DNA of 64,000 nucleotides from Halovivax ruber XH-70 (GTDB lineage Archaea > Halobacteriota > Halobacteria > Halobacteriales > Natrialbaceae): the NCBI RefSeq assembly GCF_000328525.1, contig NC_019964.1, positions 1-64,000 on the forward strand. The letters run 5' to 3'. How positions within the stretch are numbered: position 1 is the first letter of the stretch; the number at the start of each line of letters is the position of its first letter. The notes below the pieces were generated by a model. That model made no database searches. It was given only the letters and a program-made list of their open reading frames with translations, and was not told where the DNA came from. Of this stretch, positions 42,552-49,500 are shown in pieces. A program made the position numbers and the translations under genes.

Positions 42552-42914
42552 GGACGTGTTGGTAGTAGGGCTGGGAACCTACCTAGTACCGTCTCGCAAA
42601 CCAGTTGGTCGTGATCACGGCGTTTCAATTTTGGTCTTCTTATGTGACTAGCAGGTGGTTTCTTTTAATGTACTGAGCAACTGGCCGTGATTTCGATTTG
42701 ATCTCAGTATAGGTGTCTCACCCTGTTGTCTCTCGCGAACACAAGAATCCCGGCCGCTTGTTCATTTAGTGGATAAAAGGTTTGTTGAGCTACGACCTCT
42801 TGAGTGGAGATAGTGGGATATTTTTGGAATAAGATAGCAGGGGGAGTTCTGAAATAGTCCATATCAGAGTAATTTGGTGGAAAGAGATATGTGTGGAAAG
42901 GAGAAGGAACGAAT
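42552..42914. other. AT-rich lead-in to the three-gene cassette, no gene seen
   Basis: No usable frame in 363 bp. A Shine-Dalgarno-like GGAAAGGAGAAGG (42895-42907) stands before the ATG at 42915, unusual among the mostly leaderless genes of this window. Confidence 0.45.
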
Positions 42915-43397
42915 ATGTCGCCTAATATTCCTGCTTGGTTTTCGATAGCAGCAACTCTCCTTTCAGGCGGGGCAATTGCCTATCTAATACGGCAGGTCTG
43001 GAATAGTTATAAGCTGAAAAGAGCCCTTAAGTGCGAAATCCAGTCCATGGAGGGTCTTGTTAATTGTACCAACTCTATGAATTCGCGTCGTTCGCCGCCC
43101 TCTGATAAGGAATTGGGGCCTTCAGACGTTCCTCCGGGAGGGTCTATCCCTACTAGTATTTACGAAGCAAATCTTCAGCGACTAGGGTTACTTCGCCAAA
43201 AGGATCTTCGGAAGATAGTGGGGTTCTATTCAGATGTATTGAGGTACAAATCAATAATGTCGTCAATTAGGGCAGGTGAGGATATTCCAGATCCCGATCA
43301 GATGGATCTGTACCAGTCCATTGGCGATTTAGAAAACCGTCGGCAATCCCTCTTTGGAGAAAACTGGATATCCGAAGAAGGCGCCGACGAGGAGTAG
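42915..43397 (+). CDS. Single-span membrane protein, cassette gene 1
   Basis: 160 aa. A short N-terminus is followed by one transmembrane helix (about 6-26, FSIAATLLSGGAIAYLIRQV) and a cytoplasmic domain of about 130 residues with charged helices. No family recognised. The ATG is chosen because a strong ribosome-binding sequence lies 8 bases upstream; a GTG at 42891 is possible. AT-rich codon use shared with the next two genes. Confidence 0.68.
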   Translation: MSPNIPAWFSIAATLLSGGAIAYLIRQVWNSYKLKRALKCEIQSMEGLVNCTNSMNSRRSPPSDKELGPSDVPPGGSIPTSIYEANLQRLGLLRQKDLRKIVGFYSDVLRYKSIMSSIRAGEDIPDPDQMDLYQSIGDLENRRQSLFGENWISEEGADEE

Positions 43398-43510
43398 GAG
43401 GTCAAGAGCAACTGGAGTCTACTATCTGGTCGTATATGAACACTTATGATGGTCCGTTTGATTTGGTAGGGCACGCAACAGTCTCGGAACGTACGTCAGG
43501 ATAAGATATT

Positions 43511-44596
43511 ATGAGTGAGCTGGATTTCCTTAAAGTTAAAGACCTCACGTTCTCCTCGGAGGAGGACTTCATTAATTACGTAGATAGTGAGGTAGACTTT
43601 GGCGAAGTGGAGGGGAACGTCAATATAATCGGGTCTGTGAGTGATTATATTACCAAAGAGCAATTCACGAAGGCTCTAGAATACGAATTTGAAACTATTT
43701 GGTCAACTGGAGATCTATATCTTTCAGCTGCTCATACTAACTCATCTGCTATTCCATACTACGTGTACTTTGATGAGGACTTTCCGGTATTCATCACTAC
43801 TGCAAACATCACTGATGAAATGCCACCAACCATTGAGAGGTTTTTGCGGACAGATCCGAACTTAGGCCGGTTTTGGCTCTCAATGGAGCAGATGGAACTC
43901 CTACGAGCAGAAATCTCCAGAAAATACGCTGATATGATTGTTCCGTTCTTTACGGGTAACAGATCGGAATACACAGAAATACCGGCCGAAAAGAGGGATG
44001 AAATTGATCGCACGATTACTTACTGGGGAGACGATGGTCGGCAAGCATATAAAGAAATGCGAACAAAGTATGGTGTCCTCCCAACAAATATTGTCTTCGA
44101 CAGACCAAACCACTTTAAATTTGGAATAAAACAAGAGGGCGTTTTCAAACATCAAGATGGCTCGATAAAAGAAGCGTGGGAATTGTACCGAAGCGAAAGA
44201 ACCCGGAAGAAGAGAGTGAAGAAGGCGATCAACACAGGACAGTTTAACGAACAAACAGAAAGTACACAGATTGCAGAACGGACGATCTCAGGTAGCAAAC
44301 CTTGGGCAGTTGAGATGGACAAAGCAATGACTTCGGAACCGCTTGAGAGCTTTGTTCCGCATCTTAATGAAGAGGAGTTGGAATTTAGCGTCGCAAATTA
44401 CAAGGTTAAACCGGATCGCTCCAGTTTTGATGCTCAATTGGTTGATAATAATAGCTACGGAAGTACCCGTCTTCGCGGCCGGCGAAACGCTATTCGGGTC
44501 TATCCGCATGAAGGGTCAGGTATTGACCAGCACATTCGAATTTACAACTTTGTGCAAGACCATTTTGATCCCTCATGCAGAGCTGTAGAGGTGTAG
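43511..44596 (+). CDS. Unknown protein, cassette gene 2
   Basis: 361 aa, soluble, AT-rich. The N-terminal half is acidic with a compact alpha/beta look (AIPYYVYFDEDFPVFITTAN near 78-97); the C-terminal half includes a basic helix (YRSERTRKKRVKKAIN, about 232-247) and a Lys/Arg-rich segment near 315-330. No catalytic motif is certain. The stop is one base before the ATG of cassette gene 3, so the two are surely co-translated. Confidence 0.75.
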   Translation: MSELDFLKVKDLTFSSEEDFINYVDSEVDFGEVEGNVNIIGSVSDYITKEQFTKALEYEFETIWSTGDLYLSAAHTNSSAIPYYVYFDEDFPVFITTANITDEMPPTIERFLRTDPNLGRFWLSMEQMELLRAEISRKYADMIVPFFTGNRSEYTEIPAEKRDEIDRTITYWGDDGRQAYKEMRTKYGVLPTNIVFDRPNHFKFGIKQEGVFKHQDGSIKEAWELYRSERTRKKRVKKAINTGQFNEQTESTQIAERTISGSKPWAVEMDKAMTSEPLESFVPHLNEEELEFSVANYKVKPDRSSFDAQLVDNNSYGSTRLRGRRNAIRVYPHEGSGIDQHIRIYNFVQDHFDPSCRAVEV

Positions 44597-44597
44597 T

Positions 44598-45749
44598 ATG
44601 ATCTCTCCGGAAGAAGTCGACTCCAATAACTATCTTCGACTTCTCACTGACTATGATGAAAAGAATTTCCGGTCAGAATATGAGAATGCGCATAAGGACC
44701 TCTCTTTAGATGCTGCAAAAGCGGCGGTAGAGGCGCTATTCCAGAATAGATACGAACCGAAATATGAGGTTTTCGAGGCAATTGCCGACGGGTTCCATCC
44801 ATACAATGATGAAGGAATGGAAACCGGGTACGAGTTCGAGCTGACAAATCCTCTATGTGAAATTAGTGAAACTCCTGCAGACGTGCTGTTGACCTCACAT
44901 GACTACCGTGAGGTCCATCTCTGCTTTATTATCTGTGAACCCGCTGGGGAGAACTACATTGAGTGGGCTACTAGGATAAATACTGTGAGTGATCTGTACA
45001 CTGGCCATGAAGAGTACCTCTTAGATCAGATACCAGTCGATGGACTTGAACCTGGTCACGTACAGTTTGTTACTGCAACTCACAAGGACGATTTACCTGA
45101 TATTGACTTTCAGTACCTTATGAATAGCGTTAGCCCTGAAAATTATTCTATATGGGTTGTTGATGACGATTATAACGGCAATGAAGATAGGAACGTAGAA
45201 TTGAGGAAAGAGTATGGACGGATCTCGCACCGGCCGTTACGAAGTGAACTTGAGAAAGGTTTTGATTATGAAAAGGGGGAAAACACTGAGGTAGGATGCA
45301 CTCTGAATAGCAATGAGTTAATAATATTACGCGAGTCCTTTATGGGTTTAATGCTAAGACAGCACGCTTCAGGTAGGGACGAGCCCCGTGAATTCGACCG
45401 AGAGGACTTCATTGAGGAACTAGCTAACCAGACTCAGTATGATGAGCCCCCAGAAGAGAAGCAAGAAGTCATTCAAGAGAGGGCCAATTTAGTATTAGAG
45501 GTAGCAGACGAATCCGACATGGTGTATTCTAAGCCGCGAAGTGAGATCAATACGAATCGGGACTATCGTCTTCGGTATCCAAGTGGGATGCCCACACAAA
45601 TTCCAGAACATATCAAACCAAAGTACATCGATTATCGCGCGCCTATCAAAATGGCTAAAGATGCGTTTCAACAAGCGAAGGAAGAGCACGAACCTAGAGA
45701 TCAATTGATGACCGAAATAGACGATTCTAGTTCTTGGGGGCCAGAATAA
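44598..45749 (+). CDS. Unknown protein, cassette gene 3
   Basis: 383 aa, acidic, soluble. ETPADVLLTSHDYREVHLCF followed by IICEP (about 91-115) has the spacing of a degenerate PD-(D/E)xK-like strand pair (Asp then Glu), but the Lys is missing, so nuclease activity is only a weak idea. The C-terminus is helical and charged. It begins one base after the stop of cassette gene 2, preceded by AGAGGTG. Confidence 0.75.
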   Translation: MISPEEVDSNNYLRLLTDYDEKNFRSEYENAHKDLSLDAAKAAVEALFQNRYEPKYEVFEAIADGFHPYNDEGMETGYEFELTNPLCEISETPADVLLTSHDYREVHLCFIICEPAGENYIEWATRINTVSDLYTGHEEYLLDQIPVDGLEPGHVQFVTATHKDDLPDIDFQYLMNSVSPENYSIWVVDDDYNGNEDRNVELRKEYGRISHRPLRSELEKGFDYEKGENTEVGCTLNSNELIILRESFMGLMLRQHASGRDEPREFDREDFIEELANQTQYDEPPEEKQEVIQERANLVLEVADESDMVYSKPRSEINTNRDYRLRYPSGMPTQIPEHIKPKYIDYRAPIKMAKDAFQQAKEEHEPRDQLMTEIDDSSSWGPE

Positions 45750-46196
45750 ATGTATATAATGCAAAAATCAACGCCTACTCTCAAACTTTTGCTTGACCTT
45801 TCGTTTATGAACTCACATACTGCGTTACGGTAGGTGGAATCTAGTCATCCATACTATGAAGCACTACCACATCTGGGTGGGGGAGTATCGTTTGGACCTC
45901 CAAAATTTCGGGTGCTATCCAGAGGCTCGTTTCAACTACTTCGACTAGAGATCTGGGGTGCAGAATAGGGTAGGTCGGTGGTATTTCATAATTCGGTCAC
46001 CTAGATGATATGAAGTACGATGCTGTTACGGTAGATCTCCGTTATAGCCTACCTTCTTCTCCCCAACCCAAACCCCTCCGTTTCGACTGGAGTAGCCATA
46101 ACCACTCCTCACGTCGAAGCAGGCGTCCCGTTTCTACCTCTTATAATATTGTAAGGCCAGTTATAATATCTGAATCCACCTATCTACAAACCATCC
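45750..46196. other. Spacer with an isolated ORB and strong A/T boxes
   Basis: A gene-free 447 bp. It contains the ORB-like box at 46072 and two A/T-rich boxes (CTTATAATATTG at 46139 and GTTATAATATC at 46160) before the 46197 gene; the second is about 30 bases before its ATG. Confidence 0.5.
46072..46092 (-). promoter_or_regulatory. Isolated ORB-like element
   Basis: The minus strand is CTCCAGTCGAAACGGAGGGG plus T, identical over 21 bases to 8284-8304. It is 35 kb from the origin cluster and borders the AT-rich cassette. Confidence 0.7.
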
Positions 46197-46646
46197 ATGA
46201 CCGAGAATTCGCCTGACCACACCCACGATCCCGCGGCAGACAGCGAGTCACCCTCGACGCTTCGCATCACGTCGAAGCCGTTCGAGGAGCACAGAGAGTC
46301 CGTCCTGGACCGCGCGGAACGCTGGGAGCAGGGCGAAGCGGTGCCACACGTCGTCAACTTTCAGGACGCGAGTCGCCTCCAGCGCATTCTCACGCCGCGC
46401 CGCCTGGAACTCGTGCGAAGTCTGATGGAAGCGCCCGCCGAGAGCATTCGCGATCTCGCCGCTCGCCTCGACCGGGACGTTCGACAGGTCCACGACGATC
46501 TCCACCTCCTGCACGAGTACCGCATCGTCCACTTCACCGAATCGGGCGGTGCCAAGCAGCCGTCGGTTCCCTACGACACGGTGCAGATCGACATCGAACT
46601 CTCGACTCCCTCGGCGGACGCGACCGAATCGCAGGCATCGGCGTAG
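46197..46646 (+). CDS. HVO_A0114-type winged-helix DNA-binding protein
   Basis: 149 aa. The HTH core LTPRRLELVRSLMEAPAESI with RDLAARLDRDVRQVHDDLHL and a wing reading IVHFTESGGAKQPSVPYD match the HVO_A0114-like family, often the antitoxin/regulator half of a toxin-antitoxin pair. The usual TumE-type toxin partner is not beside it. It may instead regulate the toxin gene at 46805, which starts 158 bp downstream. Confidence 0.85.
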   Translation: MTENSPDHTHDPAADSESPSTLRITSKPFEEHRESVLDRAERWEQGEAVPHVVNFQDASRLQRILTPRRLELVRSLMEAPAESIRDLAARLDRDVRQVHDDLHLLHEYRIVHFTESGGAKQPSVPYDTVQIDIELSTPSADATESQASA

Positions 46647-46804: not shown

Positions 46805-48013
46805 ATGGGCCGGAAGAAGCGCCGGCGGCGCGCCGATCGGGAGCGCGCGACCGAGCGCGACCGTGCCGACGACGAGGCGGAGCGCGACGCAGCGTCGGCC
46901 CTCGGGACCCCGATGGGCATGCCGGACGCGCCGATCCCCGATTCCCCGATGCCCGACGCGCCCATGCCGGACGCGGGCGTCCCAGATATGGGGCTGGGCG
47001 GGGCGGCGATGCCCGGCGCAGCGATGGGCCAGGAACACGGGCGTAGTGCGACCCAGTCGCTGACGATGCGCGGCTACGGCCCAGAGGCCCAGCAGCACAT
47101 CTATCGGGCGACGGAGGAGACGGGAACGGATCCCCACGACGTGCCAGACGCCGTCCTCGACGTGCTCGCGACCGGTGGCGGGCAGTCGCTCGACGCTTCG
47201 ATTCAACGTGCGCTGGAGGAGCGGATGGACGCTGACTTTTCGGACGTGGAGATTCACACCGGCCCGGCGGCGGCGAAAGCCGCCGACGCGATCGACGCCC
47301 GGGCGTTCACCTGCGGGAATGCCATCGTGTTCAACGACGGCGAGTACGATCCCGAGAGTGCGGAGGGGCAGCATCTTCTGGCGCACGAGTTGGCGCATGT
47401 GAAACAACAGACCGGCGCGGCGATCTCGATGATGCCGCAGGCGGACGCCGACCTAGAGATTGATCCGGACCCGCAACTGGAGCGCGAGGCCGATCAGGCG
47501 GCCGAGGATGCACTCTCGGGCGACGAGCCGCTTATCGTGAACCGACTCGGCGCCGACGTGCACATTCAGCGGTGGAAAGACCAGCCACGGGACGCCTATG
47601 GGCGGTTTGATCAGAAAGATCTGGACCAGTACCCTCATAAAAAATGGGGGAGACAAAAACGCCCTCCGTATGCCCGAGGGCAGGTAGAAGAAGTATGGCG
47701 TCGAGCAGATACCGATGCTGAAGCGCTCGACACGGGACAGGTCCCCGACCCACATGAACCCTGGCGTATCCTAACCTGGGATGGTGGCTCTCGAAAAGGG
47801 GCCTGGGAAATGGGACACAAGCAGGGAAGGGAATACAGGTATCTGGTCGAATACTATCTGCAGGACGTAATCTCTGAAGCCGAGTTCCGTCGAGAGTACC
47901 AAAACCCCGATCACTACCACCCACAACATCCAGATACGAACAGAAGTGGCCAATACGACGGTGAAGGAGAGTACTGGGTGAGCAAATGGGGAACGTTGGA
48001 GGACAACCAATGA
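46805..48013 (+). CDS. Polymorphic toxin: DUF4157 domain plus GH-E nuclease
   Basis: 402 aa. A basic N-terminus and a Pro/Met repeat (MPDAPIPDSPMPDAPMPDAG, about 39-60) precede a DUF4157 domain (about 135-205: LDASIQRALEERMDADFSDV, then the HELAH metal motif). The C-terminus (about 270-402) matches the GH-E family of HNH/EndoVII nucleases: WEMGHKQGREYRYL with conserved G-H and E, then FRREYQNPDHYHPQHPDTNR. No signal peptide is present, so export would need a contractile (eCIS) or other apparatus not found here. The stop overlaps the immunity gene (ATGA). Confidence 0.85.
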   Translation: MGRKKRRRRADRERATERDRADDEAERDAASALGTPMGMPDAPIPDSPMPDAPMPDAGVPDMGLGGAAMPGAAMGQEHGRSATQSLTMRGYGPEAQQHIYRATEETGTDPHDVPDAVLDVLATGGGQSLDASIQRALEERMDADFSDVEIHTGPAAAKAADAIDARAFTCGNAIVFNDGEYDPESAEGQHLLAHELAHVKQQTGAAISMMPQADADLEIDPDPQLEREADQAAEDALSGDEPLIVNRLGADVHIQRWKDQPRDAYGRFDQKDLDQYPHKKWGRQKRPPYARGQVEEVWRRADTDAEALDTGQVPDPHEPWRILTWDGGSRKGAWEMGHKQGREYRYLVEYYLQDVISEAEFRREYQNPDHYHPQHPDTNRSGQYDGEGEYWVSKWGTLEDNQ

Positions 48014-48507
48014 CCGAGAACGACGATGACCTGTACTACCATTCGGAGTTAGAAACGGCCGTGATCCAAAACGACGGTGAGCGGTTTGAAGCCCTCGCTG
48101 AAGAAGCGAATCTGCACGGCCGGTCGGACAACGGAAGTACACTGTTGCACAAAGCGGCAAGTGTGGGCGAGACTGAGATGGTACAGCGGTTGATCGATCG
48201 TGGTATCGACACAGATATTCAAAACGAGGGCGGAAAGACTGCGCTTCACGTTGCCGTTGACAACGGCCACACTGAAGCGGGCGAAACTCTCGTCACAAAC
48301 GGAGCGGCTCTCAATATCCAGGATAACAGCGGAGCTGTACCGCTATTTAAGCTAGTCTACCGCAATGATGTGGAACTAGCGCAACTGATGATCGAGAACG
48401 GGGCTGACCCGACAATCGAGAGCAACGGTGGCGTCTCACCGCTCGACATCGCCACGGAAATCGACGCCGATGACATGGTAGAGATATTGCGCCAAAACCC
48501 ATCGTAG
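48010..48507 (+). CDS. Ankyrin-repeat protein, likely immunity protein
   Basis: 165 aa with about four ankyrin repeats (STLLHKAASVGETEMVQRLI, KTALHVAVDNGHTEAGETLV, VPLFKLVYRNDVELAQLMIE and SPLDIATEIDADDMVEIL). Ankyrin proteins commonly neutralise adjacent polymorphic toxins. The ATG overlaps the toxin stop, the coupling typical of toxin-immunity pairs. No signal peptide, so it acts in the cytosol. Confidence 0.85.
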   Translation: MTENDDDLYYHSELETAVIQNDGERFEALAEEANLHGRSDNGSTLLHKAASVGETEMVQRLIDRGIDTDIQNEGGKTALHVAVDNGHTEAGETLVTNGAALNIQDNSGAVPLFKLVYRNDVELAQLMIENGADPTIESNGGVSPLDIATEIDADDMVEILRQNPS

Positions 48508-49038
48508 CGAACAGGACTGTCCGTACACTACGACCGGCGTAGTGGTATTGATCGAAATCATCTGGTCCACACGAATCTCGAAAACTTCGACCGAAGCGGA
48601 ACGTACGCGTGCTTCGACCCATCGAGTGGGACCGGGGACGAATTCCACGAGATCACAGATGAGGCCACGGCCGGGTTTTGTGCTCGCCGGGAAAGTGGTT
48701 GGGTCGCCGTGTATCCTGATCCGGACGAAGACACGCTCGTCGTTCAGATCGATGGAACGACCTGGGATCTATACGGTCCAGAGACGGTTGTTAAATATTA
48801 CCACGAGTACGACGACGCCGAGACACATTTCCGGATCGAAGATGGAGAGGAGCGATTCGAAACATCGTACGAAGCGTGGTGGGCTGATCGGCCTGATTTC
48901 GATCCGAATCCATGGGCAGCAAGTGAAGAAGAAGAGAGCTCAATGTACGACTTCTTCGGCTATATACGGATGCTCTGGCAGCACGAGGCGGATAAAGACA
49001 ATTGGATCGATATGTGGTCTGCAAACCTGACGGCCTGA
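48508..49038 (+). pseudogene. 5'-truncated immunity-like gene in frame with ankyrin gene
   Basis: Directly after the ankyrin TAG the same frame continues as convincing protein (HYDRRSGIDRNHLVHTNLEN, FDPSSGTGDEFHEITDEATA) to the TGA at 49038, but there is no ATG or GTG until 48709. Either translation starts at GTG 48709 (109 aa), or this is the tail of a gene whose 5' part was replaced by the ankyrin gene. Rich in Trp, Asp and Glu like many immunity proteins. Readthrough of the TAG would make a fusion but is not expected. Confidence 0.6.
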
Positions 49039-49161: not shown

Positions 49162-49500
49162 ATGACGAACCTCCACTACGACGATACCGTGTTGACGATC
49201 GACGGCGAATCGGTCACTCTCGAGTACGAAATAACGCAGGTCATGGAAGCGGACGGTGTCGTGCTTGCGGTACTCTACCCTCCGGAGGGTGAACAACACG
49301 ACGGACGAAATGTCGTTGCGTTCGATACGGACGGAAACCAGTTGTGGCGATCCGAACTCCCCGAGGACGATGAGCGCCACTTGTTCGGAAACGTCTATCG
49401 AGAAAACGGTGACATCATCGGCTGGAGCTGGAACTCCAACGAGTACAAGATCGACCTCGAGACGGGCGAACTCGAGAATCTCGGGTACGCCGGAAAATAA
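49162..49500 (+). CDS. Small immunity-like beta-rich protein
   Basis: 112 aa, acidic, alternating strand pattern with VVAFDTDGNQLWRSELPED and IIGWSWNSNEYKIDLETGE, resembling the PQQ/beta-propeller-type blades of small immunity proteins. Family not certain. Its place after the toxin, ankyrin gene and remnant suggests a spare immunity gene. Confidence 0.65.
   Translation: MTNLHYDDTVLTIDGESVTLEYEITQVMEADGVVLAVLYPPEGEQHDGRNVVAFDTDGNQLWRSELPEDDERHLFGNVYRENGDIIGWSWNSNEYKIDLETGELENLGYAGK

What the first reader, a model, noticed from the sequence alone, without database searches (positions are those of the whole stretch)
46805..48507. Archaeal polymorphic toxin with GH-E nuclease and ankyrin immunity
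A DUF4157 (HELAH) domain joined to a GH-E nuclease, overlapping an ankyrin gene by ATGA, is the full layout of a bacterial-type polymorphic toxin in an archaeon. It lacks a signal peptide, so how it leaves the cell is open; an eCIS or vesicle route (arvABC is present) are options.
Basis: partly seen in the sequence, partly recalled or inferred. Interest (0 to 1): 0.7.

Follow-up and report, generated by a model that had tools for sequence, protein, structure and literature searches.

The report
Archaeal injected nuclease with ankyrin antidote
A salt-loving archaeon carries a gene for a DNA-cutting toxin, almost certainly injected into neighbouring cells by its phage-tail-like spear, next to the gene for its antidote; the class is already known, but this locus shows how such toxins swap their warheads and leave old antidote genes behind.

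Summary
ORF 46805-48013 (402 aa) joins a DUF4157/eCIS_core domain (PF13699, 110 bits; HELAH intact) to a GH-E nuclease (PF14410, 91 bits). Its stop overlaps an ankyrin gene (48010-48507) by ATGA. All 13 GH-E modules found in 391 Halobacteria-class genomes are followed directly by a related ankyrin gene, and the two proteins' divergences correlate (Mantel r 0.80). The export question is largely answered: the genome encodes a contractile injection system, split between 128.9-139.5 kb and 2.714-2.718 Mb, plus about 12 further DUF4157 proteins with different tips. The class is known. Zhang 2012 tabulates GH-E + PVC-metallopeptidase + Imm-ank, including euryarchaeota. A 2024 study shows CIS-dependent secretion of DUF4157 proteins, and toxin-immunity rescue, in Halogeometricum. 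New here is a visible tip swap. A congeneric genome has the same locus with a colicin-D tip; this window has GH-E + ankyrin there and keeps the old immunity gene. The module ends at a conserved Gln-Arg, after which DNA similarity to paralogues collapses. Nuclease activity, immunity and delivery of this pair are inferred, not shown.

The parts
46197..46646 (+). HVO_A0114-type winged-helix regulator upstream; 93.5% identical DNA and syntenic in congener G043
   Evidence: Pfam PF25212 109 bits; synteny
46805..48013 (+). Polymorphic toxin: leader + DUF4157/eCIS_core + GH-E nuclease tip
46805..46999 (+). Leader aa 1-65: basic helix and disordered Pro-rich MPDAP repeats; also carried by two effectors without DUF4157 in H. 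asiaticus; probable CIS loading signal (inference)
47189..47419 (+). eCIS_core domain (aa 129-205) with HELAH (aa 194-198)
47567..47572 (+). Conserved Gln-Arg (aa 255-256) at the end of the N-module; DNA identity to own-genome paralogues falls from about 0.8 to about 0.25-0.35 right after it
47573..48010 (+). GH-E (HNH/EndoVII) nuclease tip, GC3 0.54 against 0.84 in the N-module
48010..48507 (+). Ankyrin-repeat immunity protein (Imm-ank type), ATGA overlap
48517..49038 (+). Orphan immunity-like ORF 1 (no clear start, may be N-truncated); relatives directly follow DUF4157 toxins in two genus-g43 genomes (one is Haloferax elongans)
49165..49500 (+). Orphan immunity gene 2; relatives follow other DUF4157 toxins, including tandem copies behind a colicin-D tip at the orthologous locus in G043

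Best explanation
This is an effector-immunity pair of the haloarchaeal contractile injection system. The disordered leader and the DUF4157 module load the protein onto the CIS (probably its spike). Firing puts it into a neighbouring cell, most likely another haloarchaeon. The GH-E domain, an HNH/EndoVII-type metal nuclease, then cuts nucleic acid, most likely DNA. The ankyrin protein, translationally coupled by ATGA, binds the tip and protects the producer and its siblings. The tip arrived as a cassette together with its ankyrin gene, replacing or displacing another tip. Shown here by sequence: domains, operon, pairing, cassette junction, CIS genes, orphan immunity genes, tip difference at the orthologous locus. 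Inferred: loading, delivery, nuclease activity, immunity, direction of the swap.
For: Domains far above cut-off. 13/13 GH-E modules followed by a homologous ankyrin gene, in tandem copies at several loci. Toxin and adjacent ankyrin divergence correlate, r 0.80, p 5e-5, 11 pairs. CIS genes in the same genome. In 391 genomes, sheath and eCIS_core co-occur (45 both, 5 and 6 alone, 335 neither; Fisher p 1e-46). Shared N-module with different tips in ten own-genome paralogues. DNA identity breaks at Gln-Arg in five paralogues and shows the reverse pattern against Haloferax elongans; GC3 drops 0.84 to 0.54. Same locus with a colicin-D tip in congener G043. Literature: CIS-dependent secretion of five DUF4157 proteins and four verified toxin-immunity pairs in Halogeometricum borinquense (PMC11566945).
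Against: No activity, immunity or secretion data for this pair. The CIS cluster is split in two places; expression and completeness (AAA+ ATPase, cap, tape measure, membrane anchor) were not tested. One GH-E genome (G173) shows no sheath hit. The structure model of the full toxin had low pTM (0.42) and no significant PDB fold match.
Confidence: 0.86

Rival explanations
1. A resident intracellular toxin-antitoxin or suicide module: the GH-E protein acts in its own cell when the ankyrin protein is lost, and is not delivered.
For: Operon overlap and order also fit toxin-antitoxin pairs; the ankyrin protein hits a PADLOC candidate model (PDC-M72A), though ankyrin repeats match many models.
Against: The same N-module occurs with many different tips and tracks CIS genes across genomes; DUF4157 proteins are secreted CIS-dependently in a relative.
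Confidence: 0.06
2. A decayed or silent cassette: intact reading frames but no longer expressed or loaded, kept by linkage in a variable island.
For: Orphan immunity relics and low-GC surroundings show recent turnover; one relative has its GH-E split by a transposase-like insertion (L046).
Against: Reading frames, GH/E and HELAH motifs are intact and close to consensus.
Confidence: 0.06
3. Export in membrane vesicles or another non-CIS route.
Against: It is 40 kb away with no link to DUF4157; a CIS is encoded and DUF4157 tracks the CIS sheath.
Confidence: 0.02

Closest known systems
DUF4157 toxin-immunity pairs of the Halogeometricum borinquense CIS/T6SS (e.g. Hbor_02990, Hbor_38740, Hbor_38900 with downstream partners; PMC11566945)
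   Same: Haloarchaeal, DUF4157 protein with closely linked downstream immunity gene, CIS genes in the genome, some pairs far from the CIS cluster
   Different: Neither nuclease nor ankyrin is mentioned in that paper's main text; here the tip is GH-E, the immunity is ankyrin, and the CIS genes are split between two chromosomal places
Tox-GH-E with PVC-metallopeptidase and Imm-ank (Zhang et al. 2012, PMC3482391, table of toxin domains)
   Same: Same nuclease family, same processing/trafficking domain, same immunity type, archaeal representatives listed
   Different: Catalogue entry only; no locus history, pairing statistics or genome CIS context for this organism
eCIS-associated toxins with N-terminal DUF4157 (Geller et al. 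2021, PMC8213781; also PMC11297309)
   Same: DUF4157 N-terminal, toxin C-terminal
   Different: Many of those lack immunity genes; here there is cognate immunity plus orphan immunity genes
PAAR-type GH-E protein with ankyrin neighbour in Pedobacter sp. AJM (L098)
   Same: GH-E tip directly followed by an ankyrin gene
   Different: Different N-terminal delivery part and bacterial host

Membership tests
Polymorphic toxin (PVC/CIS-delivered) | Conserved N-terminal trafficking module with variable C-terminal toxin tips | tested here: met
   Own-genome paralogues share about 250 aa (62-78% identity to the window for the five measured), tips unrelated
Polymorphic toxin (PVC/CIS-delivered) | Immunity gene immediately downstream | tested here: met
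   ATGA overlap; 13/13 GH-E modules paired with ankyrin
Polymorphic toxin (PVC/CIS-delivered) | Cassette exchange: orphan tips and orphan immunity genes | tested here: met
   (L041 second GH-E/ANK cassette)
Polymorphic toxin (PVC/CIS-delivered) | Toxicity and rescue by immunity protein | not testable with these tools
   Needs expression in Haloferax volcanii
GH-E nuclease (PF14410, HNH/EndoVII) | Profile match above cut-off with conserved GH, E, N, E residues | tested here: met
   91 bits vs 25; alignment A3 keeps W, MGH and the following E-Y; N and a C-terminal E present in the window
GH-E nuclease (PF14410, HNH/EndoVII) | Fold similarity to solved HNH nucleases | tested here: inconclusive
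   Full-length model search gave no significant match; domain alone not searched
DUF4157/eCIS_core | PF13699 match with HExxH | tested here: met
   110 bits; HELAH
Archaeal CIS/T6SS cargo | CIS sheath, tube and baseplate genes in the same genome | tested here: met
Archaeal CIS/T6SS cargo | CIS-dependent secretion | not testable with these tools
   Needs sheath mutant secretome
Imm-ank immunity proteins | Ankyrin-repeat protein, directly downstream of toxin, co-diverging with it | tested here: met

The most novel reading that the evidence does not exclude
The conserved Gln-Arg at the exact end of the N-module is a processing or hinge site, cut by the DUF4157 metallopeptidase to free the tip in the target cell. 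The short leader, rather than DUF4157, is the true CIS loading signal, since H. asiaticus has effectors with only leader-IQR-tip, one of them at the syntenic locus.
Probability: 0.2. Interest if true: 0.65.

Novelty: new member of a known kind. Interest (0 to 1): 0.42.

Why it matters
It gives a clear natural case of warhead exchange in an archaeal injection system: one locus in three Halovivax genomes with a nuclease tip, a colicin-D tip and a tip without DUF4157, with immunity genes retained after the swap. It offers a testable nuclease-ankyrin pair and a sharply defined module border for dissecting how archaeal CIS cargo is loaded. It does not add a new kind of system.

Tried and rejected
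Full-toxin structure: leader disordered, pTM 0.42; Foldseek against PDB gave nothing below E 5, and coordinates are not exposed, so whether Gln-Arg sits in the HELAH cleft could not be measured. Sequence search of the PDB: nothing relevant. A tblastn of the N-module in plasmid records did not list H. borinquense among the rows shown, so the verified Hbor proteins could not be aligned directly. The vesicle route was considered and set aside. PADLOC: no defence system for the flanking low-GC genes. The mBio 2019 paper on the archaeal armoury is not held. One paper search was malformed and one for DUF4157 with autoproteolysis found none.

Full report
What is there. ORF 46805-48013 encodes 402 aa with a DUF4157/eCIS_core domain (aa 129-205, 110 bits) and a GH-E nuclease domain (aa 310-385, 91 bits); ORF 48010-48507 encodes a 165-aa ankyrin protein, the two sharing ATGA. 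HELAH and the GH motif are intact, and no Sec-type hydrophobic segment exists. The N-terminus is instead a basic helix followed by a segment of very low model confidence, presumably disordered; N-terminal hydrophobicity and disorder are the features that a published classifier used to recognise CIS cargo (PMC11297309).

The pair is conserved. GH-E is rare in the class: 8 of 391 genomes. In all 13 GH-E modules, window included, an ankyrin ORF homologous to the window's follows directly on the same strand; several loci have two to four tandem copies, one has a second orphan GH-E/ankyrin cassette, and one has its GH-E split by a transposase-like insertion. Distances among tips and among adjacent ankyrin proteins correlate (Mantel r 0.80, p 5e-5, 11 pairs); shared ancestry of the loci contributes to this. 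Even a PAAR-type GH-E protein of Pedobacter sp. AJM is followed by an ankyrin protein.

The genome context supplies the delivery machine. The genome (one 3,223,876-base contig) has a sheath and two tube genes plus DUF6760 at 2.714-2.718 Mb and a baseplate cluster at 128.9-139.5 kb with CIS_tube/LysM, GPD hub, PAAR, gp25, two Baseplate_J and Tail_P2_I. It has 14 eCIS_core matches (about 13 proteins). Across 391 genomes, sheath and eCIS_core (taken at E below 1e-6) co-occur far beyond chance (45/5/6/335, Fisher p 1e-46); the genomes are related, so the p-value is optimistic.

Cassette structure. Five own-genome paralogues match the window N-module DNA at roughly 0.73-0.92 over the 360 bases before the codon after Arg256, then drop to 0.13-0.37 at once; against Haloferax elongans (G210; named) the pattern is reversed, mostly unmatched before and 0.63-0.82 after. 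GC at third positions falls from 0.84 to 0.54 at the border. In a sample of haloarchaeal DUF4157 proteins, a Gln-Arg lies about 59-64 residues after HExxH (later where the module carries an insertion) in the complete copies of the short type and marks the border; the long type lacks it, and two genus-g43 proteins have Gln-Trp there with a Gln-Arg about 20 residues later. The alignment was itself chosen by this motif, so its 100% is not an independent figure.

A tip swap at one locus. In a congeneric genome (G043) the left flank, the regulator (93.5% identity) and most of the N-module (85%) are syntenic with the window; the tip there is colicin D (PF11429, 68 bits), followed by four copies of the immunity family that in the window survives as ORF 49165-49500, where similarity resumes. 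In H. asiaticus (G071) the locus, syntenic on both sides, holds the same leader, then IQR and a different tip with no DUF4157, then the same immunity family; a second locus there has the same make-up. The other orphan ORF (48517-49038) has relatives only in two genomes of genus g43 (one is Haloferax elongans), directly behind DUF4157 toxins. The simplest reading is that GH-E + ankyrin (perhaps with orphan 1) entered between the N-module and an older immunity gene; the direction is inferred.

Against what is known. Zhang et al. 2012 list Tox-GH-E with PVC delivery, PVC-metallopeptidase, Imm-ank and euryarchaeota, and mention several variable-tip PVC toxins in H. borinquense. The 2024 study of that organism showed CIS-dependent secretion of five DUF4157 proteins and four toxin-immunity pairs verified in Haloferax volcanii, with a membrane-bound CIS. 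So this is a new member of a known kind. Whether the present CIS is membrane-bound or released could not be tested.

Organism.

Noticed in passing
L012-L019, e.g. L018:8233-9186, L013:9648-10589; 29 of 43 partners in the wider sample: A roughly 240-350 aa protein family with no Pfam match directly follows ten other DUF4157 toxins of this genome and 29 of 43 other sampled toxins, including ones with gly-zipper (possibly membrane-acting) tips. Its model (pLDDT 80) has no significant PDB fold match. One undescribed family serving many different tips may be general immunity or a shared adaptor/chaperone.
   Followed up: partly
L123:7140-8430 and L122 (G071, Halovivax asiaticus): Effectors with the same leader joined through IQR to another tip without any DUF4157 domain, suggesting the leader alone may suffice for loading.
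   Followed up: partly
G000 128.9-139.5 kb and 2.714-2.718 Mb: CIS genes are split: baseplate/spike genes and sheath/tube genes lie about 640 kb apart on the (presumed circular) chromosome.
   Followed up: partly
window 42600-46000: Low-GC (0.44) island with two adjacent unknown ORFs (43511-44596, 44598-45749), absent from the syntenic stretches of two relatives; no significant Pfam or PADLOC match.
   Followed up: partly
   Followed up: no
L085, L070, L118: Other haloarchaeal DUF4157 tips: deaminase (39 bits) and colicin D (65-68 bits).
   Followed up: partly
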